Positions 12,046 to 38,056 of a DNA stretch of 64,000 bases are shown here, piece after piece. A program made the translations under genes and the position numbers. Source of the stretch: Blastococcus sp. (lineage in GTDB: Bacteria > Actinomycetota > Actinomycetes > Mycobacteriales > Geodermatophilaceae). Numbering within the stretch: the first letter of the stretch is position 1; each line of letters opens with the position of its first letter. The DNA lies in contig JAODNN010000025.1 of the NCBI GenBank assembly GCA_025465355.1, positions 1 to 64,000 on the forward strand, in the 5' to 3' direction. Below the pieces are notes generated by a model. The model searched no databases. It was not told the origin of the DNA and was given only the letters and a program-made list of their open reading frames with translations.

Positions 12046-13425
<1,380 letters not shown>

Positions 13426-13503
13426 GCCACCCGGCAGGCAGTCCTCAGCGCAACCACGCGCTGGCGGTCTGACGGGCCGGCCTCGCCCGCGAGCCAGGCT
13501 TCC

Positions 13504-13546: not shown

Positions 13547-13584
13547 ATGGGGGATGGGAGGCCGCAGATTCAGGCGGGGAGTTC

Positions 13585-14097: not shown

Positions 14098-14134
14098 GGA
14101 GGGGATCGTGTCAGCCGCCGCGGTGTTCGACTGT

Positions 14135-14641: not shown

Positions 14642-14643
14642 TG

Positions 14644-15204: not shown

Positions 15205-15294
15205 GGTCTCCCTTACTCGCGGTGGGCTCTTTATGAGCTCTCGAACAAGTACCACCCCACTCGGACGTTTTCGGTACGTCAACCGCCCGACCGA

Positions 15295-16068: not shown

Positions 16069-16166
16069 GCCCACCCTGTGCCCAGATCCGGCGTCCGACA
16101 CCCCGCTCGGGCTGTGAGGTGGTAGCTGTCCATGACCAGCGCCGCTGCGGCCTGACGGCTCGGAGT

Positions 16167-17549: not shown

Positions 17550-18919
17550 CAGAGCACCTGTCGATCCGAGAGCCGGCGGGCCGGAGCCACCGCCCGCGAC
17601 GAATCCTGCAGGGACCGGTGTGCGGTCTCCGGCGCCAGCGCCAGGGCCAGCAGGGTCAAGGCCATCATGGCGAGCACGTACACCGAGACGGCGAACGGGG
17701 TGCCGAATGCGCGCACGAGTGCGATCGACACGATCGGTGCGATGCCCCCGCCGAGGACACCCGCCAGCTGGTAACCCATGGAGGCCCCGCTGTAGCGGAG
17801 CTCCGTGGAGAACAGCTCGGCGATGAAGGCGGCCTGCGGTCCGTACATGGCGGCGTGGGCGGCCAGTGCGACGACGACGGCGAGGACGACGACCGCCGTC
17901 GTCCCGCTGGAGAGCAACGGGAAGAACGCGAACGCCCAGACGGCAGCCGCGACCGCCCCGATCGCGTACACCGGGCGCCGGCCGAGCCGGTCCGACAGCC
18001 CGCCGAAGAGGGGGATGAGCACCAGCTGGACCGCCGAACCGATGAGTACTGCGGTCAGCCCGAGGCTGCGTGGGAGGCCGACGGAGGTCGTGAGGAAGAC
18101 CAGGCTGTACACGGTGAAGGTGTAGAAGGCCACGTCGGTGCCGATCCGGGCGGCCATCGCGACGAGCAACTCCCGCGGGTGCCTGCGTACCACCTCGACC
18201 AACGGCATCTTCGCCTTCGCCCCGGCACGCTCGACATCGGCGAACAGCGGGCTCTCGGCGACGGTGCGGCGGATCCACAGGCCCGCGAGCACCAGGAGTC
18301 CGGACAGCAGGAACGGCACCCGCCATCCCCACGCCAGGAACTGGTCCTCGCTCAGCACCGCTCCGAGCAGTCCCAGCATCCCGGCAGCGAGCAGGTTGCC
18401 CAGCGGCACGCCGACCTGCGGCCAGCTGGTGTTGAAGCCACGTCGCTCGGGCACGCCGTGCTCGAGCGTCATGGTGACCGCGCCGCCCCACTCGCCGCCC
18501 AGTCCCAGCCCCTGCGTGAAGCGCAGCACCGCCAGCAGCACGGGGGCTGCGACGCCGATCGAGGAGTAGGTGGGCAGCGCCCCGATCAGAACGGTGGCCG
18601 TGCCCATCAGCAGCAGGGTCAGGACGAGGACCGGTTTGCGGCCCCGCCGGTCGCCCAGGTGACCGAACAGGATGCCGCCCAGCGGCCGCGCCACGAACCC
18701 GACCGCGGCGGTGCTGAACGCCAGCAGGGTTCCCGTCACCGGCGAGACGTTGGGGAAGAAGAGCCGGTTGAAGACGACCGCGGCTGCGGCGGAGTAGAGG
18801 AAGAAGTCGTACCACTCCAACGACGTCCCGATGAGGCTCGCGACGATCACCTTGCGCATGCTGCGTGTTCCGGCGGATGCATCGCCGCGCGTCCCCGGCG
18901 CTGCGTCGGTCCTGCTCAT
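17549..18919 (-). CDS. MFS transporter, metabolite:H+ symporter (MHS) family
   Basis: Proton-coupled uptake of an organic acid or osmolyte (shikimate, citrate, alpha-ketoglutarate, proline/betaine are known family substrates). 456 aa from ATG 18919 with GAGGAG upstream. Twelve membrane helices; the MHS signature is SLIGTSLEWYDFFLY in TM1, GFVARPLGGILFGHLGDRRGRK between TM2 and TM3, and RFTQGLGLGGEWGGAV in TM4. C-terminal ELFSTELRYSGASMGYQ is also typical. Downstream DUF2254 gene overlaps by one base. The 330 bases upstream, to 19210, hold no gene that I can support. Confidence 0.92.
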   Translation of the reverse strand: MSRTDAAPGTRGDASAGTRSMRKVIVASLIGTSLEWYDFFLYSAAAAVVFNRLFFPNVSPVTGTLLAFSTAAVGFVARPLGGILFGHLGDRRGRKPVLVLTLLLMGTATVLIGALPTYSSIGVAAPVLLAVLRFTQGLGLGGEWGGAVTMTLEHGVPERRGFNTSWPQVGVPLGNLLAAGMLGLLGAVLSEDQFLAWGWRVPFLLSGLLVLAGLWIRRTVAESPLFADVERAGAKAKMPLVEVVRRHPRELLVAMAARIGTDVAFYTFTVYSLVFLTTSVGLPRSLGLTAVLIGSAVQLVLIPLFGGLSDRLGRRPVYAIGAVAAAVWAFAFFPLLSSGTTAVVVLAVVVALAAHAAMYGPQAAFIAELFSTELRYSGASMGYQLAGVLGGGIAPIVSIALVRAFGTPFAVSVYVLAMMALTLLALALAPETAHRSLQDSSRAVAPARRLSDRQVL

Positions 18920-19216
18920 GACCGCTCCTCGATCCGGTCGGCGGGTCGGAGAAGGAGCAGTACCCACCGGGCCGGCCGATCGCGCATCTTTGCCCTCGTT
19001 CGTGCACGCCGCCGGGGCGGCCGGGTGGCCTACCGGCTGCCGCGCGAGCTGGTGGCCGCCGGCTGCGCGAGACCAGGCCGGCATTCGTCATGGCTCGGAA
19101 GACCGCCGGACGGGAGTGGGCACCCGCTCCGTCGCTCGCCAGAGCGGAACGCAACCATGCAGGTGCACGGCTTGTTCCCGCGCCGTGGATGACGTGACAC
19201 GGAAAGTCGACAAAGC

Positions 19217-19255
19217 TCAAGTTAGTTGACCGCGCAAGTAAACAGGGTCTAGCTT
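19217..19255 (+). promoter_or_regulatory. Promoter with overlapping operator-like repeat before DoxX gene
   Basis: TTGACC (19226-19231) and TAGCTT (19250-19255) are 18 bp apart, a reasonable housekeeping promoter. The -35 is covered by an inverted repeat TCAA-GTTAG-TTGA (19217-19229). Its TAGTTGA heptamer recurs, in the other orientation, twice in the MarR/YceI intergenic region at 45.6 kb, so the same MarR-type regulator may act here. Confidence 0.45.
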
Positions 19256-19295
19256 TTGCTTGCTGCATCAAGTCAATCACGAGGAAGTGGATCAC

Positions 19296-23466: not shown

Positions 23467-24990
23467 GTGGTCGTGACGGGCAGCGGGACCGGGACGGTGG
23501 CGCGGCGCGGCGCCTGGGGCTCCTGGGCGCCGAGCGGCCGCGGTGCGGTCCCGCTCATCGTCCTGCTGGTGATCGTGGCGAACCTGGTCGGCGTCGCCAC
23601 GGTCACGGTGCTGCTGGTCGGCGTCGCCGGCGGCAGCAGTGGTGGCGGCCGTTCGGCCGTCCTGCTCACTGCCGCCGCCTACCTGGCGGTGGCGCTGCCC
23701 GCGGGCATTCTTGCCGGGCTCCGCCGGCAGCGGGTCACCAACGGATGGCTGCTGGCCGGCCGCGCCCCGACCGGCGCCGAGGCGTCGCATGCCCTGCGGT
23801 TGCCCGTGGAGACGGCGCTCATTGCCGGCCTGATCTGGTTCGTCGGCGCGGTCCTGGTGGGCATCGTCTCCGCCACCACCTTCCCGGACCCGCTGGTGGG
23901 GCTGCGGACCGGTGTGGCCACCGTGCTCGGCGGCATGGCGACCGCCGGGGTCACCTATCTGCTGGTCGCCCGGGCGGCGAGGGCCGTGACCGCCCGGGCG
24001 CTCGCCGCCCATCCGCCGGCCGGAACCCTGACTCTCGGCGTGCGCCCGCGTCTCGTGCTCACCTGGGGCCTCAGCAGCGCGGTCCCGATGCTCGGCGTCG
24101 TCCTGCTGTTCCTCGACCCGAGCAACCCGGAGGGGCCCGGCCGGGCGGTCGTCGTCTTCCTCGTGGTCGTGGCCCTCCTGGTCGGGGCGCTCGCCACCCT
24201 GCTCACCGCCCGCGCGGTCGGGCAGCCGCTGCGCGACCTCCGGGAGGCCGTGGAACGGGTGGGCCGCGGCGACTACGACGTCAGCGTCGTCGTGGACGAC
24301 GCCGGCGAGATCGGGTTGCTCCAGGAGGGCATCAACTCCATGGCCGCGGGCCTCGCCGAGCGGGAGCGGCTGCGGGACCTGTTCGGGCGGCACGTAGGCA
24401 CCGAGGTCGCGCAGCGGGCCCTGCGCACCGGGGTGTCGCTCGGCGGCGAGGAGCGGACGATCGCCGCGCTGTTCGTCGACATCGCGGGGTCGACCTCGCT
24501 GGTCCGCCGCACCGGCCCCGAGCAGATGGTCGGCCTGCTCAACCGGTTCTTCGCGGTGGTCGTCGAGACGATCGAGAGCGAGGGCGGCCTGGTGAACAAG
24601 TTCGAGGGCGACGCGGCCCTCTGCGTCTTCGGTGCGCCGGCCGAGCACGACGCCCCTGCGGGGGCGGCGCTGCGGGCCGCCCGGCGGATCTGCGACAGGG
24701 TCTCCGACACGGGGGAGGTCGACGTCGGCGTCGGGGTTGCCTTCGGGCCGGCATGGGCCGGTCAGGTGGGCGCGGCCAGCCGGCTCGAGTACACCGTGAT
24801 CGGCGACCCGGTGAACGAGGCGGCGCGGCTCACCGAGCTGGCCAAGGAGCATCCCGGCCGGGCGGTGGCCAGCGAGGCGACCGTCCGGGCGGCCGACGAG
24901 AAGGAGCGGGCGCACTGGCGCTGCGACGCCGAGGTCGAACTTCGGGGGAGAGGCGAGCCCACCGTCACCTGGGTGCGGCGGGTGGACTGA
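23467..24990 (+). CDS. Class III adenylate cyclase with six-helix membrane domain and HAMP
   Basis: Makes cAMP from ATP at the membrane. 507 aa. Six hydrophobic segments fill residues ~25-260, then a HAMP linker ([19 protein letters not shown] to GLAERERL, ~255-310), then the cyclase homology domain. Metal-binding Asp residues are in LFVDIAGSTSL and KFEGDAALCVFG; the Lys of NKFEGD and the Asp of YTVIGDPVNEAARL specify adenine, and Asn of NEAARL stabilises the transition state. This is the Rv1318c-Rv1320c/Rv3645 architecture of mycobacteria. The signal sensed is unknown. GTG 23467 is the first clear start. Confidence 0.92.
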   Translation: MVVTGSGTGTVARRGAWGSWAPSGRGAVPLIVLLVIVANLVGVATVTVLLVGVAGGSSGGGRSAVLLTAAAYLAVALPAGILAGLRRQRVTNGWLLAGRAPTGAEASHALRLPVETALIAGLIWFVGAVLVGIVSATTFPDPLVGLRTGVATVLGGMATAGVTYLLVARAARAVTARALAAHPPAGTLTLGVRPRLVLTWGLSSAVPMLGVVLLFLDPSNPEGPGRAVVVFLVVVALLVGALATLLTARAVGQPLRDLREAVERVGRGDYDVSVVVDDAGEIGLLQEGINSMAAGLAERERLRDLFGRHVGTEVAQRALRTGVSLGGEERTIAALFVDIAGSTSLVRRTGPEQMVGLLNRFFAVVVETIESEGGLVNKFEGDAALCVFGAPAEHDAPAGAALRAARRICDRVSDTGEVDVGVGVAFGPAWAGQVGAASRLEYTVIGDPVNEAARLTELAKEHPGRAVASEATVRAADEKERAHWRCDAEVELRGRGEPTVTWVRRVD

Positions 24991-24999
24991 CCGGGCAGG

Positions 25000-25965
25000 T
25001 CAGCGCCCCGCGGCTCGACCTCGCAGGAAGTCGTGGGCGGTCTGCTCGCCGGTGGCGAGCAGACCGCGGCGCTCGACCGGTCCGATGCCGAAATCGGTGA
25101 TCGCCGTGCCGTGGACGTCGACGGTCATCGTCCTTTCCCGCACGCCGGGTCGTTCCAGGTGCGTCTGGTCCCGGCCGACCAGCGTCGTCGCCACCACCCG
25201 CTCGAGCAGCCGGACGGGCGGCAGCATCGGCAGGCCGTAGAAGGGCACGAGGTCACCGAGGCCGGCCGGCAGGTCGGGGAACAGCCGGACGCCGAACGTC
25301 GGCCAGCGTGGTTCCTTCCCGTCGGTGCGGTCGAAGATCTCGATCGCGAAGTTGGACAGCAGCCCGCCGTCGACGATCGTCGCGGTGTCGCCGGTGAGTG
25401 CGTTCCGCAGCTCGCAGGGCTCGAAGTAGAACGGGATCGACAGCGACATGCGGACGGCGTCAGCGACCGGCTGCTCGTCTGGCTCGAGGTTGAACAGGTG
25501 ATAGTCCCAGGGCAGGCGGAGCAGCCGGCCGTTGGTCACGTCGGTGGCCATCACCACCAGCCGGTACCGGCGGTCCATCTGCTCGAGGGCGGGGTCGGCA
25601 CCCGGATCGCTCCGCCGTAGATCGGCAAAGGTGTGCACGCCGACGGTGGCGAGCTCCCTGCGCACCCACTCCCGGATCCAGTCACCGGCGTAGGCGCCCC
25701 GCTGGGCGAGCAGCCCGACGCTCTCGCTGACCAGTGGCAGCGGGATCCGCCGGTCCGGGATCGCGTGCAGGTCCAGCCGGTCGAGGATGCTTCGGAAGCC
25801 ATCCGCGTCCACGCCTGCGGCGACGAAGGCAGCTGCCAGCGCACCCACCGAGGTCCCGGCCACCCGCTCGAACGTGTAGCCCGCATCGAGCAGGCCCATG
25901 ACCGCTCCCGCGGTGCCGAGCCCCTTGACGCCACCGCCCTCGAGCACGAGATCGGCCTTCGGCAT
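25000..25965 (-). CDS. Patatin-like phospholipase (copy 1)
   Basis: Serine lipid acyl hydrolase, 321 aa from ATG 25965. Oxyanion motif LEGGGVKGLG, nucleophile elbow GTSVG (Ser of GXSXG), and the second dyad residue in VDGGLLSNF. Between them lies MATDVTNGRLLRLPWD, common in bacterial patatins. Last gene of a minus-strand set (SRPBCC, DUF4331, TPR-like, patatin), one base after the TPR stop. In the proposed lipid cluster it could release the free fatty acid that the divergent alpha-dioxygenase-like enzyme would use; that link is inference. Confidence 0.92.
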   Translation of the reverse strand: MPKADLVLEGGGVKGLGTAGAVMGLLDAGYTFERVAGTSVGALAAAFVAAGVDADGFRSILDRLDLHAIPDRRIPLPLVSESVGLLAQRGAYAGDWIREWVRRELATVGVHTFADLRRSDPGADPALEQMDRRYRLVVMATDVTNGRLLRLPWDYHLFNLEPDEQPVADAVRMSLSIPFYFEPCELRNALTGDTATIVDGGLLSNFAIEIFDRTDGKEPRWPTFGVRLFPDLPAGLGDLVPFYGLPMLPPVRLLERVVATTLVGRDQTHLERPGVRERTMTVDVHGTAITDFGIGPVERRGLLATGEQTAHDFLRGRAAGR

Positions 25966-25966
25966 G

Positions 25967-27114
<1,148 letters not shown>

Positions 27115-27118
<4 letters not shown>

Positions 27119-28677
27119 CAGGCCGGGGCGAGGTAGGGGAACTCGGTCAGGAAGGGCGTGTCGTTGTGCAGCGGGTTGGGTGGCGTCCTGGGCGTGATCT
27201 TCGCCCCGTCCCACAGCGCCTGGTCACCGAGGGTCTCCACCGAGTAGCCGCTGGTTCCGAGCGGGGCCCCCATGTCGAGGAACATCGAGAGGAAGCGAGT
27301 CGCCACCTGGTCCTCGGGCCGCCGGCCGAAGGGCCAGGTGCCTGTGGTGTCGACGTCGATGGCGCACACGTTGGGGATGAAGATCTCGAACGGCCGGCGC
27401 AGCGGGATGTCCAGCCTGTTCTTGTTCCACGAGTCGTCCGGCATCCGGAGCTCCTGGAAGATCAGCTTCCGGCCGCGAGGGAAGGCCGCGGCGGCGGTCG
27501 CGTACTTCTTGTGCACCGACACCGGTGAGTTGTCGTGGTCGAACGCGCTGGCCAGGCCGAGGGCGGTCACCGACGGGCCGAATCCCCAGCCGAGGTGGGC
27601 CAGCCGCCGCACGAACGCCGGTGCCAGCCAGAAGTTGTTCGCGCCGAGCTGCCGGCTGTCCTCCCGCTCGCTGAGGCCGGCATCGGCGAAGGGTTGCCCG
27701 ACGGTGTCGACGAGCTTGTAGCGCTGCAACTCGTCGTCCAGTCCGCGGCGGCGGAGCAGTGCCACCGGGTTCTCCAGCCACAGCGGGTCGTCCGGGATCG
27801 TCTCGATCTTCGACGAGGCCTTCAGCACCCAGCTCTCGCCCCAGACGTTGACGACCCGCTCCTCCTCCGGTCGCTCGGTGAGGAACGACAGCGGCACCTC
27901 GAGGATGATCGCGTTGACGTTCTTGCCGGCCTGGGCGTCCATCCCGCTGTAGACGAAGCGGTAGTTGCCGTCGGCGTCCTTGGCGAAGCTGTCGCCCTCC
28001 CATGTGTAGGGGCCTGGCGGCAGATCAAGCTTCACGCCGTGCCCGTGCTCGGGGATCTCCGGGTTGTAGTTGAACAGCGAGTTGCCCTCGAGCTCGAGCA
28101 ACGTCTTGGGGATAGGCAGTTCGCGGAGGTCCTGCCTGGCCATGGGCACGTGATAGAACTGCGGCGCGTAGTTGATCGACCGGAAGAATCCGGTCAGGTC
28201 GTTGAAGAACGCGTCGTCCCGGCCGCCCAGGTAGGCGGTGATCTCTGCGCCCGACGGCGCCCGGATCGACGTCACTTCATTGGTGTGCACCCGCGTGGTG
28301 AAGCTGCCGCCCGGGAAGTCGCTGAAGCGCACCGTCGCGGTCCCCGACGAATCCACCGTCACCCGGATCTCCGCGGCGTGCCGCTGACCCAGGTAGTGGT
28401 CCCGCATCGCGTCGAAGTACCGGCTGAGCGCGGAGAGGCTCCACTCGTCCGTTCCCGGCCGGACCGAGCGCGCATGCGGGTTCACCTGCAGCCGATAGAG
28501 CATGTCGGTGTCGAACACCCCCGCCTCGGGCACGGCCGCGAAGGTCAGCGCGAGCACGACCTTCTCCTCGTCGGTGGCATCGCTCGGGTACCCGAACATG
28601 TCGTAGACGTCGGCCGCGCTGACGTCGACGTCGGAGAAGATGCTGTTGACCGAGTTCGGGTCGTTGTGGTCCGCCAC
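27115..28677 (-). CDS. DUF4331 family protein
   Basis: About 520 aa from GTG 28677, chosen because a GGGGG purine run sits just upstream and DUF4331 proteins begin with an ADH-D motif (here VADHNDPNSVN); GTG 28704 is an alternative. Family marks: DVSAADVYDMFGYPSD near the N-terminus and VVLALTFAAVPEAGV. These are predicted beta-rich proteins of unknown biochemical role, often large and found near redox or halogen metabolism genes. Here it lies between an SRPBCC protein and a TPR-like protein in a coupled operon. No signal peptide is seen. Confidence 0.82.
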
Positions 28678-28743
28678 GGTTGTCCCCCAGACGGTGGTGG
28701 TCACGGGCCGGGCCCCGGGGTCCGGGCGCCCGGTGTGGGCGCG

Positions 28744-29205
28744 TCAGGTCGGTGGGCCCGGTGGGCTCTCGAGTCGCTGGACCGTGTGGCGCAGGTCGCG
28801 GGCGAAGTAGGAACTGCCGCCCAGGGAGAGCAGGACGTCGAGGATCCGGCCCTTCGTCGTGTTCGGCACCCGGACGACGTCGAGGTCGATGTCGGTGCCG
28901 CCGTTCTTCCCGGGCTCCAGCAGATAGGTCCAGCGGCTGCCCGGCCCGAAGGCGTTGCTGTCGAGCACCTCGATGGTGACCGCGCCGGGCGACGACCAGT
29001 CGTAGCGGGAGCGCTGCCAGATCGAGCCCGCCGCCGGGGAGCCCTCGGTCACCTCGGCCCAGGTGTCGCCCTTGTCGTGCACTCTCAGCCGGCCCTCGTC
29101 GTTGTTGCCCCAGATCTGGCTACGGCCGGGACCGAAGTCGGTGAGGGCAGCGACGAATCGCTCCGGCGGGAATGCGCCGTGCGCATGGACGTGCACCCTG
29201 CCCAT
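28744..29205 (-). CDS. SRPBCC (START-like) family protein
   Basis: 153-aa helix-grip protein that can bind a hydrophobic ligand in a central cavity. Starts VHVHAHGAFPPERFVAALTD, the normal first strand and helix, and ends with a long amphipathic helix (FARDLRHTVQRLES). First gene of the minus-strand lipid operon; 570 bases separate it from the divergent operon. A lipid carrier or cyclase/aromatase-like role would fit, but nothing in the sequence proves a ligand. Confidence 0.8.
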   Translation of the reverse strand: MGRVHVHAHGAFPPERFVAALTDFGPGRSQIWGNNDEGRLRVHDKGDTWAEVTEGSPAAGSIWQRSRYDWSSPGAVTIEVLDSNAFGPGSRWTYLLEPGKNGGTDIDLDVVRVPNTTKGRILDVLLSLGGSSYFARDLRHTVQRLESPPGPPT

Positions 29206-29778
29206 CGGCTCGTCCGTTTCTGTTCATTGTTCCTGCGATGTGCACAGGAATTGCCGGAACCGGCGGGGGTGGAGGGTGCAGTCCCGCCGGTTCTGATCGA
29301 GCAGCGTCCGCCTGCTCCCCTTTTTCTGTCAAGGTCGATGGGGCTCTTGTCGGGTTCTTCCTGATCGCCCTGTGGTTGCAATTCCCAGGACCGTGCGAAC
29401 GCGCGGGCGGTGGCTGTCGTGCCTGCAGAAGGAACACGACATGGCCGGTCCCGCGTCGTCCGGCCGTCGGTGAGCTGCCGAAGTCGCGGCTGCTGCCGGC
29501 GCAGGCCGGGACGCCGCCGACCGGCCGGCGACTTTTCCGGAATGGCGCCCGGCCCCCTTGTGATCATGTGGGCTCGGGAGGAATCTGTGCGTGACCGGGG
29601 GGAAGCTCTCGGTCGACATATTCAGGGGGAAGTCGGGCCGGTACCTCAGCCGGAACCGGTGATGAGCGCGTGCCTGTCGACGGAGAACGTGCATTTTTCC
29701 ATTCGGCGTCGATTGTCTCCGCGTGCCCAGTCCTCCGACGAGTTCGCCCGGTACGAGCCCGGGCGGGGAGGACCACCC
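29206..29778. promoter_or_regulatory. Intergenic region between the two arms of the lipid cluster
   Basis: 573 bases between divergent operons, with lower GC than its surroundings at 29215-29240 and 29320-29350. It must hold both promoters, but I cannot assign -35/-10 boxes with confidence, and I see no convincing gene; the open frames across it lack ribosome sites and family resemblance. Confidence 0.4.
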
Positions 29779-30177
29779 GTGTCCGCCATCGGGACCGCCG
29801 GAACCGCCGCCCGTTACACGCTCGGGAGTATCCGCGTGCTCAACGGCGCGCTCGGGCTGATCGCCCCGACGGTCATCATTCGCCGGTTCGGCGATCAGCA
29901 CCCCGAGAGCAACGCCGCGGCCATCTACGGGCTGCGGTTGTTCGGGGCCCGGACGATCGTGCTCGGCGCCGACCTCTTCCTCCTGCGCAACCGCGAGCTC
30001 GACGGGGCGCTCCGCTCGGCCATCCTGATCCACGGAAGCGACACCGCGACAGTGCTGGCCCTGCGCCGGAACAAGCAGCTGAGCCCCGAGCGTGCGCGCC
30101 CGCTGGCCCTCATCTCCGGGCTGAACACCGTGCTGGCGATCACCGCCTACCTGGGTCGCCGCCGGAGCAGGCCATGA
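29779..30177 (+). CDS. Small membrane protein, DUF4267-like (unrecognised)
   Basis: 132 aa from GTG 29779 with GGGGAGGA just upstream. It begins with polar residues, then LGSIRVLNGALGLIAPTVII and YGLRLFGARTIVLGADLFLL, which are amphipathic to hydrophobic, and a third segment ALISGLNTVLAITAYL. The R-x-G-A-R-T pattern resembles the DUF4267 group of small membrane proteins, but I do not assign a function. Its stop overlaps the GMC oxidoreductase start (ATGA), so it belongs to that operon. Confidence 0.7.
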   Translation: MSAIGTAGTAARYTLGSIRVLNGALGLIAPTVIIRRFGDQHPESNAAAIYGLRLFGARTIVLGADLFLLRNRELDGALRSAILIHGSDTATVLALRRNKQLSPERARPLALISGLNTVLAITAYLGRRRSRP

Positions 30178-32213
30178 CCGGCGACGGTGCCGGTCCGGGG
30201 GCACCCGCGGGCGAGTTCGACTACGTCGTGGTCGGCTCGGGCGCCGGCGGCGGGCCGGTCGCGGCCAACCTGGCCGAGGCCGGGCACCGGGTACTGCTGC
30301 TCGAGGCCGGCCTCGACCCCGAGGACGACGACTACCGCGTGCCGGCCTTCCATGGACGCGCTACGGAGAGCCCCGGCATGAGCTGGCCGTTCTACGTCCG
30401 CCACTTCGACGACACCCCGCAGCAGAAGCGCGACGAGAAGTACGTGCCCGAGCACGACGGGGTCCTGTACCCCCGCGCCGGCACCCTCGGCGGCTGCACC
30501 GCGCACAACGCGATGATCACGATGTACCCGCACGACGCCGACTGGGACGGCATCGCCGAGCTCACCGGTGACCGGAGCTGGCGCGCCGCGGCGATGCGGC
30601 ACTGGTTCGAGCGGCTGGAGGCCTGCGGGTACAACGACCGTCCCCGCATGTTGCCGCGCCCCCGCTGGCTGGCTCGACTGCTCGCCCGGCTGCCGTTCGT
30701 GAGCGACACGTACGTCAACCGCGGCCGGCACGGCTTCGGCGGCTGGCTGCACACCAGCCTGCCCGACCCGAAGCTGGCGCTCGGTGACCCGGAGGTCGTC
30801 GAGGTCGTCACGTCCGCCGTGCTGCGCAATCTGGCCGACCTGCTGAAGCGGCCGCTCAGGCCGCGCGAGGGGCTCACCGGCTGGCTGGATCCCAACGACT
30901 GGCGGGTGCGGAAGACCCTCGAAGGCGCCTGGTTCATCCCTCTCGCCGTCCGGAAGGGCCATCGCAACGGCACCCGCGAGCGGATCCGGGACGTCGCGAA
31001 GCGGCTGCCCGACCGCCTGGAGGTACGGACCGGCGCCCTGGTGACCAGGGTGTTGTTCGACGACCACGGCACGACCGCACGGGGCGTGGAGTACCTCCCG
31101 CAGCCGCACGCGTACCGCGCCGACCCCGCCGCTGACCCCGGCCCGGCGGTGTCGCCGATCCGGGTGCGGGTCCGCCGCGAGGTCATCCTGGCCGGCGGCG
31201 CCTTCAACACCCCGCAGCTGCTCAAGCTCTCCGGCATCGGCCCGAAGGCGGAGCTGGACCGGTTCGGCATCCGGTGCCGGGTCGACCTTCCGGGGGTCGG
31301 GGAGAACCTGCAGGACCGCTACGAGGTCGGCGTCGTCAGCCGGATGAAGGAGAACTTCGCTCTCCTGAAGGGCCTCACGTTCAGGCCGCCCGGCAAGGGG
31401 GAGGAGCCCGATCCCGGCTTCGTCCAGTGGCGCGAGGGGAAGGGCGTCTACACGACGAGCGGGGCCCTGCTGGGCGTCGTCCGGAGGTCCCGGCCGGAGC
31501 TGGCCAGCCCTGACCTGTTCGTCTTCGGGCTGCCGGCCCGCTTCATCGGTTACTACCCCGGCTACTCCGGCGCGCTTGCCGAACACAGCGACGTGTTCAC
31601 CTGGGCGGTGCTCAAGGCGCACACGGCCAACCGCGCGGGTCGGGTGCTGCTGCGCTCGGCCGATCCGCGCGACGCGCCGGACATCCGGTTCCACTACTTC
31701 GAGGAGAGCAACGACGGCGCAGGGGAGGACCTCGACGCGGTCGTGACCGGCATCGAGGTCGCCCGCTCGATCATGCACCGCGTCGACGACTACGTGGAGT
31801 GCGAGCTGGTACCCGGAGACGACGTCCGCACCCGCTCGGCACTGCGGTCCTTCGTCCGCGACCAGGCGTGGGGCCATCACGCCTCGTGCACGTGCGCGAT
31901 GGGCCCGGCGAGCGACCCGCAGGCCGTCGTCGGCAGCGACTTCCGGGTGCACGGGACCAGCAACCTGCGCGTCGTCGACGCCTCGGTCTTCCCCCGGATC
32001 CCGGGCTTCTTCATCGTCACCGCGATCTACATGGCGGCGGAGAAGGCCAGCGCCGTGATCGCGGCCGCTGCCGCGGCGGCGGACGCGGCTTCTCCCGGAC
32101 CCGCACCGGCCCGCGCCGAGATCAGGCGCGTGCTCGACCTCCTGCCCCACCCGCGCAAGCCGAACCGGTCCCCCGTTCTGCAGGGCCCCCGAGCCGTACA
32201 GGAGAACCGATGA
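30174..32213 (+). CDS. GMC family FAD-dependent oxidoreductase
   Basis: Oxidises an alcohol to aldehyde or ketone using FAD. 679 aa, ATG 30174 overlapping the upstream stop. FAD-binding beta-alpha-beta motif [20 protein letters not shown] then LLLEAG; GMC signature 1 around GGCTAHNAM; signature 2 near [17 protein letters not shown] (~residues 340-356). The C-terminal part has [11 protein letters not shown], carrying the active-site His, and [16 protein letters not shown]. No signal peptide. Neighbouring alpha-dioxygenase-like gene (ATGA overlap) suggests long-chain fatty alcohol or hydroxy-lipid as substrate; this is inference, since GMC substrates vary widely (choline, cholesterol, glucose, fatty alcohol). 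Confidence 0.92.
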
Positions 32214-34126
32214 GCACCGAGATCTCAGAACCGACCGGCACCAGCCGCACCACTGAGCCCTCGCCGCGGGTCGATGCCGACGGCCACCCCGACAAGAAGG
32301 CGGTGTCCGCCGTACCCCCGCCCGTGCCGGGAGCCGACTACCGGCAGACCTGGTTCTGGCGGACCTACGACACGATCGCGCAGCTCGTGGACCGCCGGGT
32401 CGGCTGGGACAAGCTGCCCCTGCCGGGGGGCCTCGCCGTGCTGATCGGGGTCCGGAACATCCTCCGCCAGAAGAACCTGCACGACCCGTCGACGGTCGTG
32501 CCGATCGTCAACGCGCCGCCGGTGCCGCAGCGCACCCCCGAGCACCTGATCGCGCGGAGTGTCGACGGCACCTACAACGACCTGGACCACCCCGACATGG
32601 GCCGCGCCGGGGCGCGCTTCGGCCGGAACATCCCGCTGGACAAGGTGCTGCCGGTGACACCTGAGCAGCTGATGGAACCGAGTCCGCGGGAGGTCAGCCG
32701 CCGGCTGCTCACCCGGACGACGTTCCGGCCGGCCGGAACCGTCAACACCCTCGCCGCGTCCTGGCTGCAGTTCATGATCCACGACTGGTTCACGCACGGG
32801 GAGGGTGACACCTCCCGCCTGGTGGACATCCCGCTGAAGCCGGGCGACACCTGGTGGGAGAACCCGATGCGGATCCCGCGGATCAAGCAGGACCCGACCC
32901 GGCCGTCAGAGGCGGACGGACCGATCACGACGGTCAACGGCGTCACGCACTGGTGGGACGGGTCGTCGATCTACGGCTCGTCCCTGGAGGAGCAGAACCG
33001 GGTGCGCACCGGCGAGGGCGGGAAGGTGCGGCTCACCGCGGACGGCCATCTCCCGTTCCCCGACGACCCGGCGCTCGACCCGACCATGAAGCCCGGTTGG
33101 TGGACCGGGCTGGGCATGCTGATGACCCTCTTCATTCGCGAGCACAACGCGATCTGCGACCGGTTCGCCTCGGAGTACCCGGACTGGGACGACGAGGAGC
33201 TCTTCCAGCGATCCCGGCTGGTGGTCTCCGCGCTGCTGGCGAAGATCCACACCGTCGAGTGGACGCCGGCGATCATCAGTCACCCGACGACGGTGTTCGC
33301 GCTGCGGGCCAACTGGTTCGGGGTGGCGGGGGAGCGGATCGCCCGCGCCTTCGGCCGGATCAGCCCCAGCGAGTTGATCAGCGGCATCCCGGGCGCGGAG
33401 ACGGAGCACTACGGGGTGCCGTTCTCGCTCACCGAGGAGTTCACGGCCGTCTACCGCATGCACCCACTGCTGCCCGACGACTTCGACTTCCGGGCGGCCG
33501 ACGGCGACACGCCGCTCGCGCAGCCTGACTTCCGGGAGCTGGCCGGTCCGAATTCGAAGGAGATCCTGGCGAAGTACGCGCTCGGTGACCTCTTCTACTC
33601 GTTCGGGACGACGCATCCCGGCGCGATCGTGCTGCGCAACTACCCGAAGTTCCTGCAGGAGTACGTGCGGCCGGACGGGAAGAAGATCGACGTCGCGTCC
33701 ACCGACATCGTGCGGAACCGGGAGCTCGGCGTCCCGCGGTACTGCGAGTTCCGGCGCCTCTTGCACCTGAAGGCGCCGCGCAGCTTCGCCGAGCTGACCG
33801 ACGACGCCGGCCTCGCCGCCGACATGGAGGACCTCTACGGCGACATCGAGAACGTCGACCTGATGGTGGGCCTGTTCGCGGAGAAGCGGCCGACCGGCTT
33901 CGCGTTCAGCGACACCGCGTTCCGGATCTTCATCCTGATGGCGTCGCGCCGGCTCAACAGCGACCGGTTCTTCACCAAGGACTTCCGGCCGGAGGTCTAC
34001 TCGCCGACCGGGCTGAACTGGATCCGGGACAACGACATGCGCACGGTCCTGCTCCGGCACTTTCCCGAGCTGCGGCCGGCGTTGCGCCGCAGTGACAACG
34101 CCTTCGCCCCCTGGACGCGCGTCTGA
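32210..34126 (+). CDS. Animal-haem-peroxidase superfamily protein with alpha-dioxygenase (PIOX-like) motifs
   Basis: Predicted fatty acid alpha-dioxygenase: adds O2 to C2 of a fatty acid to give a 2(R)-hydroperoxide. 638 aa, close to plant alpha-DOX (~620-640). Distal haem His191 lies in WLQFMIHDWFTH, as in plant enzymes; the substrate-binding THWWDGSSIYG loop follows; FIREHNAICD (309-318) is the superfamily motif; the catalytic Tyr415 and proximal His418 are in TAVYRMHPLLPDDF with the diagnostic Y-x-x-H spacing. The C-terminal NSDRFFTKDF and YSPTGLNWI are also alpha-DOX-like. No signal peptide, suggesting a cytosolic or membrane-associated enzyme. Third gene of a coupled operon. Bacterial alpha-DOX members exist but are little studied. 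Confidence 0.9.
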   Translation: MSTEISEPTGTSRTTEPSPRVDADGHPDKKAVSAVPPPVPGADYRQTWFWRTYDTIAQLVDRRVGWDKLPLPGGLAVLIGVRNILRQKNLHDPSTVVPIVNAPPVPQRTPEHLIARSVDGTYNDLDHPDMGRAGARFGRNIPLDKVLPVTPEQLMEPSPREVSRRLLTRTTFRPAGTVNTLAASWLQFMIHDWFTHGEGDTSRLVDIPLKPGDTWWENPMRIPRIKQDPTRPSEADGPITTVNGVTHWWDGSSIYGSSLEEQNRVRTGEGGKVRLTADGHLPFPDDPALDPTMKPGWWTGLGMLMTLFIREHNAICDRFASEYPDWDDEELFQRSRLVVSALLAKIHTVEWTPAIISHPTTVFALRANWFGVAGERIARAFGRISPSELISGIPGAETEHYGVPFSLTEEFTAVYRMHPLLPDDFDFRAADGDTPLAQPDFRELAGPNSKEILAKYALGDLFYSFGTTHPGAIVLRNYPKFLQEYVRPDGKKIDVASTDIVRNRELGVPRYCEFRRLLHLKAPRSFAELTDDAGLAADMEDLYGDIENVDLMVGLFAEKRPTGFAFSDTAFRIFILMASRRLNSDRFFTKDFRPEVYSPTGLNWIRDNDMRTVLLRHFPELRPALRRSDNAFAPWTRV

Positions 34127-34264: not shown

Positions 34265-35293
34265 TCAGGCATGGCTGCGGACCACGACGAGGACGTCGCC
34301 GGTCTGGAGCTCGCCGATCAGCGGGTCGTCGTAGCGGAGCGTCCGGCCGCCGCGGGTGACCGACAGGACGATGTCGCGGAGCGACCGCGGGCCGAGTCCC
34401 ACCTCGCTGCCGGTGACCGTGCGCTGGTGCAGGTCCAGGCCCTGGCCGCCGGTGACGAGGTCCTCCACGACCGCGACCACCCGCGGGGCGTCGGTCGACA
34501 GCCCCAGCAGCCGGCCGGAGGTCGCCGACGTGGTGATGACGGTGTCGGCGCCGGACTGCCGCAGGAGGTTGGCGTTCTCCTCCTCGCGGACGCTGGTCGT
34601 GATCGGCACGCTCGGGTTGAGCTGACGGACGGTGAGGGTGATGAGCACGGCCGCGTCGTCCCGGTTGGCCGCCACGATGACGGCGCGAGCCCGCTCGACC
34701 GAGGCCCGGCGCAGCACCTCGGTGCGGCCGGCGTCGCCGACGATCCCGGTCAGCCCGAGTGAGTTCGCCTCATCGATCGCCCGCGACTCCGGGTCGACGA
34801 CGACGATCTTGTCCAGCGGCGTCCCGAGCGCCTGCAGCGAGCGGATGGCGCTGCGGCCCTTGGTGCCGTAGCCGCACACGATGACGTGCTGGCGCACGCG
34901 GGACCTCCAGCGTCGGATGCGGAACTCCTCCCGCGAGCGCGCGGTGAGCGCCTCGAGGGTGGTTCCGATGAGGACCAGCAGGAACGTGATGCGCAGCGGG
35001 GTGATCAGCAGGATGTTCACCAGCCGCGCGCCCGGCGTGATCGGCGTGATGTCGCCGTAGCCGGTGGTGGAGAGGGTGACGGTCGCGTAGTAGACCGAGT
35101 CGAGCAGGGAGAGCCCGACGCGGTCGCCGTCCCGGTAGCCGTCCCGGTCGGCGTAGATGACCGCGACGGTCAGCGCGAGCAGGAGGAGGGCGAAGAGCAC
35201 CCGGCGCAACACCTGCCGGACCGGTGTCTCCTCCTCGTGGGCGAGCCGGACGCCGGTGTGCTCGGTCTCGACACCGACGCGCTCGTGCTCCAC
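34265..35293 (-). CDS. Two-TM potassium channel with RCK/TrkA-N domain
   Basis: K+ channel of the MthK/Kch type, 342 aa. First TM at VLFALLLLALTVAVIYA, the pore helix and selectivity filter ATVTLSTTGYGDITPI, second TM around NILLITPLRITFLLVLIG. The cytosolic RCK N-lobe starts HVIVCGYGTKGRSAIRSL with the nucleotide-binding glycine pattern, DPESRAIDE as the acidic end of beta-2; the C-terminal lobe (TrkA-C) ends GELQTGDVLVVVRSHA. Its start is 56 bases from the AMP-ligase stop, so the two may share a transcript; the gap has a palindromic operator-like site. Confidence 0.93.
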   Translation of the reverse strand: MEHERVGVETEHTGVRLAHEEETPVRQVLRRVLFALLLLALTVAVIYADRDGYRDGDRVGLSLLDSVYYATVTLSTTGYGDITPITPGARLVNILLITPLRITFLLVLIGTTLEALTARSREEFRIRRWRSRVRQHVIVCGYGTKGRSAIRSLQALGTPLDKIVVVDPESRAIDEANSLGLTGIVGDAGRTEVLRRASVERARAVIVAANRDDAAVLITLTVRQLNPSVPITTSVREEENANLLRQSGADTVITTSATSGRLLGLSTDAPRVVAVVEDLVTGGQGLDLHQRTVTGSEVGLGPRSLRDIVLSVTRGGRTLRYDDPLIGELQTGDVLVVVRSHA

Positions 35294-35349: not shown

Positions 35350-37101
35350 TCAGGCCGGGGCGGATCCCTCCACCGCCGCACGCTCCCGGGCGGCGAGTTC
35401 CCGCTTGAGCACCTTGCCCGCGGCCGAGACCGGGATGGCGTCGATGAAGACGACGTCGCGCAGCCTCTTGTACGGGGTCACGTGGGCGTTGACCGCGGTG
35501 ATGACCGACTCGGCGGTGAGGGCGGCCCCGGCGGCGTCGGCCTTGCGGACGACATAGGCGACCGGCAGCTCGCCGGCGTCCTCGTCCGGGCGGCCGACCA
35601 CCGCGGCACCGGCCACGCCGGGCACGGCGAACAGGTGCTCCTCCAGCTCGCGGGGGAAGACGTTGTAGCCCTTGTAGAGCAGCATGTCCTTCGTGCGGTC
35701 GACGATCGACAGGTAGCCGTCCTCGTCGAGGATGCCGACGTCGCCGGAGTGGAACCAGCCGTCCGCGTCGATCGACTCGGCCGTGGCGTCCGGGCGGTGT
35801 GCGTACCCGCGCATCACCTGCGGGCCGCGGATGCAGACCTCGCCGCGCTCACCGGCCGGCAGCGGTGCCCCGCCCCCGAGCGGCTGGATGCTGATCTCGG
35901 TGTCGAAGATCGGGACGCCGACCGTTCCGGCCTTCCGGGTCCCGGACCGGAACGCCGGGTTGCCGGTCGCCTGCATGGTGACCTCGGTGAGCCCGTAGCC
36001 CTCACCGATGACCGCGTCGGGCAGCAGCCGCCGGAGCCGCTCGATGAGGGAGACGGGCAGGGGAGCGGCGCCGCTCGAGACGCCGCGGACGTGGGACAGG
36101 TCGGCGTCCTCGATGCCCGGCACCTGCAGCAGCGCGACGAAGACCGGCGGGGCGCCGCCGATGCTGGTCACCTTGTGCTTCACCGCGTCCTCGACGTACC
36201 TCACCGGGTCGAAGCGCATGTGGATGACGGTGGTGGTCCCGCCCATGACCATGCCGTTGAGGTAACCGATCGCACCCATCGCGTGGAACCAGGGGGTCAG
36301 GTTGATCAGCCGGGCCTCGCCGAGCTGGGTCGGGTACTCGTCGCGGCCGCCGAGCTGGCGCAGCGTCACGTCGCCGGCCTCGTCCAGCTCCGGGAGCGAC
36401 CCCGACGTCCAGCACGCCGACTGGAGCACGTTGGTGACGACGGTGCGGTGCGGGAGCTCCACGCCCTTGCTGACGCCCGTGGTCCCGCCGGTGTACGCGA
36501 GGTGGGCGAGGTCCGCGGCGGGGTCGACGTCCGCGTCGAGGTGCCGGTCGGTGGGATCACCGGCGAGTGCGTCGGCGAGGTCGAACTCGCCGTCCTGCAC
36601 ATCGACCCTCGCGGCGAAGTCGAGAGTGTGCGCCTCTCCGGTGACCACCACGGTCGTCACCGGGGTGGCGGCGAGAGCGGGACGCACGAGCGGCAGCACC
36701 TGGTCCCAGGTGACCAGCACGCGGGCACCGGCGTCGGTCAGCTGGGCGGCCAGATCGGGCGCCGGCAGCAGCGGGTTCGTGGGGGAGAAGGTCGCCCCGG
36801 CCAGCAACACCCCGTAGTAGACGGCCGGGTACTGCCGGCAGTTCGGCAGGTGGACTGCCACCACGTCGCCGCGGCCGACGCCGTGGTCGGCCAGCCACCC
36901 GGCGACGGCGTGGGCCCGGCGGCCCAGCTCGTCGAAGGACAGCGGGACGTCGTGGTCGATGAATGCGGTCCGGTCGCCCCAGCGCCGCACCGCCGCCCGC
37001 AGGATCGACCCGACCGGCACCTCGGGGTAGTCGAGGGACCGGGGCAGCCCGGGCGGCCAGCTCGAGGCGGCCGGCGCGGGGGCGGACTGCGTGGCGGTCA
37101 T
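35350..37101 (-). CDS. AMP-dependent acyl-CoA synthetase (fatty acid/4-coumarate-like)
   Basis: Activates a carboxylic acid to its CoA thioester through an acyl-AMP. 583 aa from ATG 37101. Core motif A3 LAYTGGTTGVSKGVELPHR (~200-218), A5 GEGYGLTEV, A7 GWFHSGDVG, A8 around SIVDRTKDMLLYKGYNVFPRE, and the A10 Lys in AAGKVLKRE at the C-terminus are all intact. The acyl pocket resembles long-chain fatty acid and 4-coumarate ligases; the substrate is not determinable. Divergent from patatin copy 2, and in the same block as the alpha-dioxygenase cluster, which fits lipid turnover. Confidence 0.93.
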   Translation of the reverse strand: MTATQSAPAPAASSWPPGLPRSLDYPEVPVGSILRAAVRRWGDRTAFIDHDVPLSFDELGRRAHAVAGWLADHGVGRGDVVAVHLPNCRQYPAVYYGVLLAGATFSPTNPLLPAPDLAAQLTDAGARVLVTWDQVLPLVRPALAATPVTTVVVTGEAHTLDFAARVDVQDGEFDLADALAGDPTDRHLDADVDPAADLAHLAYTGGTTGVSKGVELPHRTVVTNVLQSACWTSGSLPELDEAGDVTLRQLGGRDEYPTQLGEARLINLTPWFHAMGAIGYLNGMVMGGTTTVIHMRFDPVRYVEDAVKHKVTSIGGAPPVFVALLQVPGIEDADLSHVRGVSSGAAPLPVSLIERLRRLLPDAVIGEGYGLTEVTMQATGNPAFRSGTRKAGTVGVPIFDTEISIQPLGGGAPLPAGERGEVCIRGPQVMRGYAHRPDATAESIDADGWFHSGDVGILDEDGYLSIVDRTKDMLLYKGYNVFPRELEEHLFAVPGVAGAAVVGRPDEDAGELPVAYVVRKADAAGAALTAESVITAVNAHVTPYKRLRDVVFIDAIPVSAAGKVLKRELAARERAAVEGSAPA

Positions 37102-37204
37102 GCGCAACCTCTCGTCGACGGTTGGTACGCGGGGGTACCGGACCCACAGGGTGACTCAGCTCATACTCCGTGTCGAGAACCGGGGGGTCTGTGAGGATGT
37201 GCCG

Positions 37205-38056
37205 ATGAGCGACCAGGGCACAGCACTCGTCCTCGGCGGCGGCGGCATCACCGGCATCGCCTGGGAGATCGGCCTTCTCGCCGGGCTGGCCGAGGCGGGC
37301 GTCGACCTGAGCGGTGCCGACTTCGTCGTCGGCACGTCGGCGGGCTCGGTCGTCGGGGCCCAGGTGACCAGCGGGGCGGAGCTCGAGGAGCTGTACGCCC
37401 GCCAGCTCGAGCCCGCCACGGGGGAGACGGCGGCGCGGCTGAACCGGGCGACGCTCGCCCAGTTCGGCTGGGCCATGCTGCGCACGCGCGGCGACCACGC
37501 GGCTTTCCGCCGCCGGATCGGCAGCATCGCTCTCGCTGCGGAGAAGGCTGGGCTGACACCGTCGGAGCAGGAGCGGCTGGACGTCATCGGTGCGCGCCTG
37601 GTCAGCACCGAGTGGCCGGAGCGGCCGTTCGTCGTCACCGCTGTCGACGCGGAGAGCGGCAAGTTCCGGACCTTCGACCGCGAATCCGGCGTCCCCCTGG
37701 TGTCCGCGGTGGCGGCCAGCTGCGCGGTGCCCGGGGTCTACCCGCCGGTCAGCATCGACGGCTCCCGGTACGTGGACGGCGGCATGCGCTCCGCGGCCAA
37801 CGCCGACGTCGCGCAGGGCTACGACCGGCTCGTCGTCCTCGCCCCCATTCCGCGCGGGATCGGGCCGATCGCCAGCGTCGACGCACAGGTGACCGGGCTG
37901 ATCGCCCGTGTCGCCGTCGTCTCGCCCGACCGGCACAGCAAGGCCGCGATCGGCAAGAACGTGCTCGACCCGGCCGCCCGGGCTTCGTCCGCCGAGGCCG
38001 GCCGCGCGCAGGCAATGACGGTCGCCCAGCAGGTCGCCGGGGTCTGGACCGGCTGA
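37205..38056 (+). CDS. Patatin-like phospholipase (copy 2)
   Basis: 283 aa from ATG 37205. The oxyanion motif LGGGGITGIAWEIGLL, nucleophile elbow VVGTSAGSVVGAQ, and second dyad motif YVDGGMRSAANAD are present. Shorter than copy 1 and only distantly like it; this form (GGGGxxGxAWExG) is common in actinobacteria. Probably hydrolyses membrane or storage lipid acyl esters. Divergent from the acyl-CoA ligase, which could use the released acids. Confidence 0.93.
   Translation: MSDQGTALVLGGGGITGIAWEIGLLAGLAEAGVDLSGADFVVGTSAGSVVGAQVTSGAELEELYARQLEPATGETAARLNRATLAQFGWAMLRTRGDHAAFRRRIGSIALAAEKAGLTPSEQERLDVIGARLVSTEWPERPFVVTAVDAESGKFRTFDRESGVPLVSAVAASCAVPGVYPPVSIDGSRYVDGGMRSAANADVAQGYDRLVVLAPIPRGIGPIASVDAQVTGLIARVAVVSPDRHSKAAIGKNVLDPAARASSAEAGRAQAMTVAQQVAGVWTG

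What the first reader, a model, noticed from the sequence alone, without database searches (positions are those of the whole stretch)
25000..34126. Candidate bacterial fatty-acid alpha-oxidation (oxylipin) cluster
Two divergent, internally coupled operons share a 570-base control region. Minus: SRPBCC, DUF4331, TPR-like, patatin. Plus: small membrane protein, GMC oxidoreductase, and a haem protein with the full alpha-dioxygenase motif set (HDW distal His191; Y415-x-x-H418; plant-like length). Patatin could free a fatty acid, the dioxygenase make a 2-hydroperoxide or shortened aldehyde, the GMC enzyme oxidise a resulting alcohol, and SRPBCC carry the lipid. The motifs are seen; the pathway is inferred. 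I know of no described bacterial operon with DUF4331 and TPR-like proteins attached to an alpha-dioxygenase.
Basis: partly seen in the sequence, partly recalled or inferred. Interest (0 to 1): 0.78.

Follow-up and report, generated by a model that had tools for sequence, protein, structure and literature searches.

The report
Bacterial fatty-acid alpha-oxidation gene block
A block of seven genes in a soil bacterium, built around an enzyme best known from plants that oxidises fatty acids next to their acid end, is gained or lost largely as one unit and recurs in part in distant bacteria, which points to a dedicated bacterial version of a plant lipid pathway.

Summary
Window 25000-34126 carries two tightly packed divergent operons: SRPBCC, DUF4331, TPR, patatin (-) and a DUF4267-like protein (SMP), GMC flavoprotein, haem dioxygenase (+). 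The dioxygenase is an alpha-dioxygenase by sequence: 397.6 bits to plant alpha-DOX against 84.1 to COX-2, in a clade with both plant enzymes, catalytic and carboxylate residues kept. The cluster behaves as a unit: in seven congeneric genomes without it, none of the seven genes lies between the flanking genes (7-250 bp apart in five). Carriers hold all, most or, in one, three of the genes there. A Thermoleophilia genome has DOX-SMP-GMC-DUF4331-TPR-patatin as one rearranged run. Linkage is graded: among 103 selected loci SMP 42, GMC 16, DUF4331 5; 32 have no scored partner. Many other alpha-DOX genes sit beside, or are fused to, catalase-like proteins, or beside DyP peroxidases; GMC and these rarely meet (1 of 16 against 41 of 87). 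Likely function: patatin-released fatty acid to 2-hydroperoxide to shortened aldehyde, then flavin oxidation. Enzyme class and linkage are shown; the chemistry is inferred. Bacterial alpha-DOX was known; my searches found no paper describing this cluster.

The parts
25000..25965 (-). patatin-like phospholipase (321 aa), last gene of the minus operon
   Evidence: Pfam Patatin 1.4e-28; orthologues 78, 76 and 77% in L058, L060, L061; this type beside DOX in 6 of 103 loci
25967..27109 (-). TPR-repeat protein (about 380 aa; start uncertain within a 9-bp repeat at 27068-27117 that holds several in-frame ATGs)
   Evidence: TPR_19 25.5 bits, at cut-off; two orthologues match several TPR models; 38% homologue in the L109 run; repeat
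27115..28677 (-). DUF4331 protein, GTG start, 520 aa
   Evidence: Pfam DUF4331 47.3 bits; 85-86% in four Blastococcus loci and 71% in Thermoleophilia L109; subfamily in 1 of 396 phylum genomes, the window's own
28744..29205 (-). SRPBCC (START/Bet-v1-like) small protein, 153 aa
   Evidence: AlphaFold pLDDT 83.9 (best of five), Foldseek best E 3e-7 to ZhuI aromatase/cyclase, then TTHA0849; orthologues 64-69%
29206..29778 (.). divergent control region, 573 bp, with conserved blocks
   Evidence: 72% mean column identity over four Blastococcus loci, including the block CCCCCTTGTGATC
29779..30177 (+). DUF4267-like small hydrophobic protein (SMP), GTG start, 132 aa
   Evidence: DUF4267 below cut-off; near DOX in 42 of 103 loci; invariant residues include G23, P30, R53, F55, G56, R58, T59, H85, D88, S113, N116 over 21 sequences
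30174..32213 (+). GMC flavoprotein oxidoreductase, 679 aa; overlaps SMP and DOX by 4 bases each
   Evidence: GMC_oxred_N/C; motifs [LIV]GGC[TS]AH and AWGHHASC in 15 of 15 aligned members, the window included; beside DOX or SMP on the same strand in 16 of 103 loci
32210..34126 (+). fatty-acid alpha-dioxygenase (haem), 638 aa; distal H191, substrate H347/T352/R581, catalytic Y415, proximal H418
   Evidence: phmmer 397.6 bits to rice and 384.6 to Arabidopsis alpha-DOX; residue tables; tree; single match in its genome
24991..34264 (.). whole block, between a stable cyclase-type gene (23467-24990 +) and a stable channel/TrkA-type gene (34265-35293 -); names of these two judged by eye
   Evidence: in 7 of 7 DOX-free congeners with both flanks in view none of the seven genes lies between them; gaps 7, 12, 71, 125, 250, 1534 and 1654 bp

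Best explanation
This is a dedicated bacterial fatty-acid alpha-oxidation cluster. Shown: the 32210 gene is an alpha-dioxygenase by sequence, tree and active site, and the seven genes come and go largely as one unit. Inferred: the patatin frees a fatty acid from lipid; the alpha-dioxygenase, perhaps held at the membrane with the DUF4267-like protein, uses haem and the Y415 radical to put O2 on C2; the 2(R)-hydroperoxide collapses to CO2 plus the aldehyde one carbon shorter (or ends as a 2-hydroxy acid); the GMC flavoenzyme oxidises the aldehyde hydrate or the 2-hydroxy acid with O2, and the H2O2 it makes could also prime the dioxygenase haem; the SRPBCC protein carries the greasy intermediate. 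The jobs of DUF4331 and the TPR protein are not known; my guess is an accessory pair added to an older SMP-GMC-DOX core.
For: Sequence: 397.6 bits to rice and 384.6 to Arabidopsis alpha-DOX over almost the full length against 107.8 for a lactoperoxidase entry and 84.1 for COX-2; profile 524 and 519 against 132 and 106. Of 16 rice active-site and channel residues checked the window has 15 (M325 is Thr); the haem-proximal His, catalytic Tyr, both Phe beside it and the carboxylate and alpha-carbon residues H311, T316 and R559 are invariant in 104 of 104 other sequences (roles from passages of PMC8720084). Tree: window with both plants and 102 bacterial rows, apart from COX-like L156-L158 and peroxidase L149, support 99. 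Unit: occupied or empty site; all seven genes in L058 and L194; L109 (Thermoleophilia) carries DOX with five kinds of partner in one run. SMP in 42 and GMC in 16 of 103 selected DOX loci against 2 of 296 and 1 of 396 phylum genomes. H2O2 activation of alpha-DOX: only the title of Zhu et al. 2013 seen. Flavin alcohol oxidases make H2O2 and often go on to the acid (PMC10947199, passage).
Against: No activity has been measured and substrate chain length is unknown. 32 of 103 alpha-DOX loci show none of the nine partner families scored, and in the phylum sample only 2 of 11 DOX genomes have SMP at E<=1e-6, so no partner is obligatory. The block is not always whole: G685 keeps only patatin, SMP and DOX; two carriers lack DUF4331. 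GMC lacks an obvious second catalytic His/Asn: the C-terminal motif is PGFF[IV] where choline dehydrogenase has TGNLN, so oxidase activity is not assured. Patatin is a common family. The tree was a quick run with long-branch warnings; the plant position in it is unsure. Neighbour genes were called by my own codon-model script.
Confidence: 0.66

Rival explanations
1. Peroxide or lipid-stress module: the haem protein works mainly as a peroxidase or lipid-hydroperoxide sink, and the GMC and patatin remodel oxidised membrane lipids rather than make a product.
For: The wider alpha-DOX loci hold many peroxide-handling haem proteins: catalase-like in 35 and DyP in 21 of 103. In 55 of 104 aligned sequences the distal His is Arg, so haem chemistry varies.
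Against: The residues that hold the fatty-acid carboxylate and the catalytic Tyr are invariant in 104 of 104, which a general peroxidase would not need. The window protein keeps the distal His.
Confidence: 0.15
2. Signal or toxin synthesis: the cluster makes a specific secreted oxylipin or fatty aldehyde, with SRPBCC, DUF4331 and TPR as tailoring or export parts, and catabolism is a side issue. This overlaps the best explanation in its first steps.
For: Patchy block at one chromosomal site (8 of 16 genomes of the genus have DOX), a shared divergent region with conserved blocks, SRPBCC fold near aromatase/cyclases: this looks like an accessory specialised-metabolism island.
Against: None of the seven families found is a known transporter, regulator or resistance protein, though SMP, DUF4331 and TPR are of unknown role.
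Confidence: 0.3
3. GMC is a fatty-acid photodecarboxylase and the cluster makes hydrocarbons.
For: GMC scores 149.3 bits to fatty acid photodecarboxylase, about as high as to choline dehydrogenase at 153.5.
Against: Two signature residues of that enzyme (C432 and R451, recalled; position 432 is Ser in the chain of entry 7av4 printed, which I take for a mutant) align with Ala and Phe in the window, and Ala and Phe stand there in 15 of 15 aligned GMC members.
Confidence: 0.02
4. Chance neighbours: seven unrelated genes in one GC-rich region.
For: Most of the 103 alpha-DOX loci lack most of these genes.
Against: Block-wise presence or absence at one site, a second assembly in L109, and rarity of the partner subfamilies elsewhere.
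Confidence: 0.03

Closest known systems
Plant alpha-dioxygenase (PIOX; rice 4kvj, Arabidopsis 4hhr)
   Same: near full-length homology, catalytic Tyr, proximal and distal His, carboxylate-binding His and Arg, positioning Thr, similar length
   Different: channel M325 is Thr; encoded with GMC, DUF4267-like, patatin, DUF4331, TPR and SRPBCC genes
Cyanobacterial alpha-DOX: CalDOX and LepDOX, with the Crocosphaera enzyme (PMC8720084, passages read)
   Same: bacterial alpha-DOX with the same key residues; that paper's tree already shows actinobacterial members
   Different: the word 'operon' does not occur in its main text; the characterised enzymes are cyanobacterial
Nostoc linoleate 10S-dioxygenase with catalase-related hydroperoxide lyase (Brash 2014; seen only as cited in PMC13049297, passages)
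   Same: bacterial haem dioxygenase paired with a hydroperoxide-handling haem protein, as in many alpha-DOX loci found here
   Different: COX-like enzyme (I take the YRWH rows L156-L158 as this type, from recall) against YRMH in alpha-DOX; the window cluster has no catalase-like partner
GMC flavoproteins: choline dehydrogenase/oxidase and long-chain alcohol oxidases
   Same: GMC fold, catalytic-His region AWGHH, [LIV]GGC[TS]AH motif
   Different: PGFF[IV] where choline dehydrogenase has TGNLN; subfamily seen beside alpha-DOX

Membership tests
fatty-acid alpha-dioxygenase | similarity to plant alpha-DOX well above COX and other peroxidases | tested here: met
   397.6 against 107.8 and 84.1 bits; profile 524 against 132 and 106
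fatty-acid alpha-dioxygenase | tree placement in the alpha-DOX clade | tested here: met
   support 99 between 105 alpha-DOX rows and 4 outgroup rows; quick method, long-branch warnings; no fungal LDS or animal COX row was in the tree
fatty-acid alpha-dioxygenase | catalytic Tyr and proximal His (YxxH) | tested here: met
   Y415 and H418, invariant in 104 of 104 others
fatty-acid alpha-dioxygenase | carboxylate and alpha-carbon residues (rice H311, T316, R559) | tested here: met
   H347, T352, R581, invariant in 104 of 104 others
fatty-acid alpha-dioxygenase | distal His haem ligand | tested here: met
   H191 in the window; only 45 of 104 others keep it
fatty-acid alpha-dioxygenase | makes 2(R)-hydroperoxy acids or Cn-1 aldehydes | not testable with these tools
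   needs an assay
fatty-acid photodecarboxylase (GMC) | Cys432 and Arg451 (recalled) | tested here: not met
   Ala and Phe in 15 of 15 members
GMC oxidoreductase | Pfam GMC_oxred_N and GMC_oxred_C over cut-off | tested here: met
   63.5 and 106.6 bits
GMC oxidoreductase | His plus second His/Asn in the active site | tested here: inconclusive
   AWGHH kept in 15 of 15; second position reads PGFF[IV], alignment shifts there
SRPBCC/START-like | helix-grip fold | tested here: met
   model and Foldseek, four of five models poor; sequence match in one of three orthologues scanned, below cut-off
DUF4331 | Pfam model over its gathering score | tested here: met
   47.3 bits, cut-off 27; only a middle stretch of the model is matched
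DUF4267 | Pfam model over its gathering score | tested here: not met
   22.8 bits, cut-off 27.8; 11 of 21 homologues match at E<=0.01
patatin | Pfam model over its gathering score | tested here: met
   100.8 bits, cut-off 27.7

The most novel reading that the evidence does not exclude
Bacterial alpha-dioxygenases run modular alpha-oxidation pathways of their own: often with a membrane partner (the DUF4267-like protein), plus one of two interchangeable modules that deal with the hydroperoxide, aldehyde or peroxide, either a GMC flavo-oxidase (here, with DUF4331/TPR/SRPBCC accessories) or catalase-like/DyP haem proteins that are sometimes fused to the dioxygenase. DUF4331 would then be an unrecognised lipid-oxidation component.
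Probability: 0.35. Interest if true: 0.76.

Novelty: new variant of a known kind. Interest (0 to 1): 0.62.

Why it matters
Fatty-acid alpha-oxidation by alpha-DOX is a plant pathway; the bacterial enzymes I found described as characterised are a few from cyanobacteria. A bounded gene block with recurrent partners gives a concrete bacterial pathway to test, offers functions for DUF4267- and DUF4331-type proteins, and supplies alpha-DOX/GMC pairs that could be of use for aldehyde or odd-chain acid chemistry. The rarity of GMC together with catalase-like or DyP partners raises a testable question: how does each version prime and clear the hydroperoxide?

Tried and rejected
AlphaFold for DUF4331 from six sequences failed (pLDDT 33.5) and a profile search found no solved relative at E<=5, so no fold is claimed. 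Photodecarboxylase for GMC was tested by residues and rejected. A first survey over 27 loci found SMP in 7 and none of GMC, DUF4331, TPR, SRPBCC or PAT; the later genome-contig scan reached closer relatives.

Neighbour counts: 30 match rows gave 27 regions (own locus and two fragments of one genome left out); with 80 loci this is 107, less 4 with identical DOX ends = 103. Near-duplicates remain (for example L031 and L067). 78 of 103 have more than 7.5 kb on both sides. My script called 18 GMC loci; 2 (L063, L066) carry the hit on the other strand, away from DOX, and are left out, giving 16. Fisher tests ignore shared ancestry. The name 'catalase-like' rests on the fused homologues: the stand-alone representative had no Pfam match. 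Empty answers for DyP and catalase-like queries in the window's own genome carry no positive control and are not used as proof of absence. Parsimony counts of partner changes were run and not leaned on. Literature: DUF4331 returned 0 papers; three searches for alpha-DOX gene clusters or this partner set listed none that describes it, judged from titles and abstract starts; the library lacks most subscription papers.
Full report
WHAT IS THERE. The window lies in a high-GC actinobacterial genome (4.9 Mb, 195 contigs) whose nearest relatives by DOX are Blastococcus and other Geodermatophilaceae. At 25000-34126 two divergent, tightly packed operons share a 573-bp gap. Minus: SRPBCC, DUF4331, TPR, patatin. 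Plus: DUF4267-like small protein (SMP), GMC flavoprotein, haem dioxygenase. SMP/GMC and GMC/DOX overlap by four bases. Orthologues fix the DUF4331 start at GTG 28677 (520 aa) and the SMP start at GTG 29779.

THE DIOXYGENASE. phmmer against PDB sequences gives 397.6 bits to 4kvj and 384.6 to 4hhr over residues 56-636, then 107.8 for an entry named lactoperoxidase and 84.1 for COX-2. I call 4kvj rice and 4hhr Arabidopsis from residue numbering against PMC8720084. A profile of 11 bacterial sequences gives 524 and 519 against 132 and 106 bits. Of 16 rice residues named in passages of PMC8720084 as haem ligands, radical neighbours or substrate contacts, the window has 15 (M325 is Thr361). Eleven are invariant in the 104 other aligned sequences; among these are the catalytic Tyr, proximal His, H311, T316 and R559 equivalents. 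The distal His, kept in the window, is kept in 45 of 104. The tree (109 rows, LG+G4, quick search) puts the window among 105 alpha-DOX rows that include both plants, separated with support 99 from COX-like L156-L158 and peroxidase L149. The tool warned of long branches; the exact place of plants is unsure. No fungal LDS or animal COX row was in the tree. Bacterial alpha-DOX, actinobacterial ones included, were already in the published tree of PMC8720084 (passages), so the enzyme class is not new.

THE BLOCK IS A UNIT. Of 16 genomes of the genus, 8 have DOX and 15 have the right-hand flanking gene, the window's own counted in both. I fetched 14 regions. In all 7 DOX-free genomes with both flanks in view, no match to the seven genes lies between the left flank (cyclase-type gene) and the right flank (channel/TrkA-type gene); the gap is 7, 12, 71, 125 and 250 bp in five and 1534 and 1654 bp in two. 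An eighth DOX-free genome gave only a 6.2-kb contig and tells nothing. In four carriers with both flanks in view the gap is about 7.7, 9.3, 11.4 and 11.5 kb and holds the cluster, with a few kb of other DNA in the two longest; in the window it is 9.27 kb and the cluster fills it. L058 (the same locus as L198) and L194 have all seven genes; L061 (the same as L196) lacks DUF4331; L192 lacks a DUF4331 match, has a weak SRPBCC match (40%) and has DOX matches in three pieces; L060 (the same as L197) keeps only patatin, SMP and DOX; the others run off their contigs.

A SECOND ASSEMBLY. Thermoleophilia locus L109 has DOX (51%), SMP (44%), GMC (56%), DUF4331 (71%), TPR (38%) and a different, large patatin (Patatin plus DUF3376) in one direction over 10088-19292; it has no SRPBCC match. 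Most of the same partners in another order, in another class, is the strongest single sign of a working unit. The 71% for DUF4331 against 51% for DOX may mean lateral transfer of part of the operon.

HOW WIDE IS THE LINKAGE. Over 103 non-redundant alpha-DOX loci (selection explained under Tried and rejected; enriched for close relatives), within 8.5 kb: SMP 42, catalase-like 35, DyP peroxidase 21, a family I call C1 20, GMC 18 (16 on the same strand beside DOX or SMP), patatin of this type 6, DUF4331 5, SRPBCC 5, TPR 4; 32 loci have none of these. Genome-wide the subfamilies are rare: DUF4331 in 1 of 396, GMC at E<=1e-100 in 1 of 396, SMP in 2 of 296 phylum genomes, the window's own being one each time. 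DOX is in 11 of 296; both SMP genomes have DOX, but 9 of the 11 DOX genomes show no SMP at E<=1e-6. So SMP looks tied to DOX more than DOX is tied to SMP. The GMC search scored only the two best candidates per genome.

ALTERNATIVE MODULES. Ten DOX proteins are fused to a catalase-like domain, five at each end; Pfam Catalase is over cut-off in L113 and just under it in L039, while the stand-alone representative has no Pfam match and is tied to them by a home-made profile. Others have catalase-like, DyP and C1 genes next to DOX. Of 16 GMC loci 1 also has a catalase-like or DyP gene (L073, which holds a second, fused DOX); of 87 loci without GMC 41 do (Fisher p 0.0019, ancestry ignored). None of 16 GMC loci has DyP. 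[quoted passage not shown] I read the modules as alternative ways to deal with the hydroperoxide, aldehyde or peroxide. That is inference.

PARTNER FUNCTIONS. GMC: best PDB relatives are choline dehydrogenase and fatty-acid photodecarboxylase at about 150 bits. The photodecarboxylase residues are replaced by Ala and Phe in 15 of 15 members, so it is not one. [LIV]GGC[TS]AH resembles the covalent-FAD site of choline oxidase (recalled); the second active-site residue is not obvious. SRPBCC: fold supported by model and Foldseek. DUF4331: model failed, no solved relative. TPR: repeats supported in orthologues.

MECHANISM. Alpha-DOX makes 2(R)-hydroperoxy acids that lose CO2 to give Cn-1 aldehydes, or end as 2-hydroxy acids (PMC8720084, passage). 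Flavin alcohol oxidases make H2O2 and often go on to the acid (PMC10947199, passage). Activation of alpha-DOX by H2O2 is known to me from a title (Zhu 2013, in reference lists). Hence: patatin, then DOX, then GMC, with H2O2 possibly priming DOX. Shown: enzyme class, unit, recurrence. Inferred: every chemical step.

NOVELTY. Known enzyme class in a new gene setting. I found no description of the cluster in searches (listings only). The review of alpha-DOX PMC9305512 has no occurrence of 'operon' or 'gene cluster' in its main text, and PMC8720084 none of 'operon'. The library is partial, so this is absence in what I could search.

Noticed in passing
alpha-DOX alignment, window H191: The distal haem His is Arg in 55, Lys in 2, Ser in 1 and Asn in 1 of 104 other sequences. 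It is missing in 20 of 21 DyP-linked loci but kept in 19 of 21 catalase-linked loci without DyP; it even differs between Blastococcus L058 (Arg) and the window. Shared ancestry not removed.
   Followed up: partly
L039, L040, L046, L115, L131 (C-terminal); L054-L057, L113 (N-terminal): Alpha-DOX fused to a catalase-like domain in both orders, suggesting repeated joining of the two steps.
   Followed up: partly
L096:6353-7948 and L097:6832-8244, and similar loci: A recurrent pair next to alpha-DOX: DyP peroxidase (21 loci) and a family with no Pfam match, C1 (20 loci), often with the catalase-like gene.
   Followed up: partly
L068 (same locus as L032), gene 7: SMP and DOX read as one 778-aa frame in an actinobacterial MAG: a possible fusion, or an assembly or calling artefact.
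   Followed up: no
window 27068-27117: Tandem 9-bp repeat (5.6 copies) at the start of the TPR gene, holding several in-frame ATG codons.
   Followed up: no
L059:3429-5391, L062:2642-3598: Extra genes, one a weak alpha/beta-hydrolase match (below cut-off), inserted in the divergent region of two Blastococcus MAG loci; a neighbour cluster with members in these two loci also has members by six Streptomyces DOX genes and Geodermatophilus L081.
   Followed up: partly
L063, L066, L068, L069, L071: Streptosporangiaceae and one MAG: DOX near other clusters that look like an alpha/beta hydrolase, another patatin type and a cholesterol-oxidase-like GMC (names judged by eye, not scanned; not all three in each locus).
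   Followed up: no
L192: In one congener DOX matches in three pieces and SRPBCC is only 40% identical: decay or sequencing error.
   Followed up: no
L158 (genome of Blastococcus L058): A second, COX-like haem dioxygenase with a Y-x-W-H motif in the same genome.
   Followed up: no
window 35350-38056: An AMP-binding acyl-CoA-ligase-like gene and a second patatin-like gene (families judged by eye) lie just outside the block; they belong to the flank: the second patatin is present in 7 of 7 and the ligase in 6 of 7 DOX-free congeners.
   Followed up: partly
window 29206-29778: Conserved non-coding blocks in the divergent gap across four Blastococcus loci, possible shared regulator sites.
   Followed up: no
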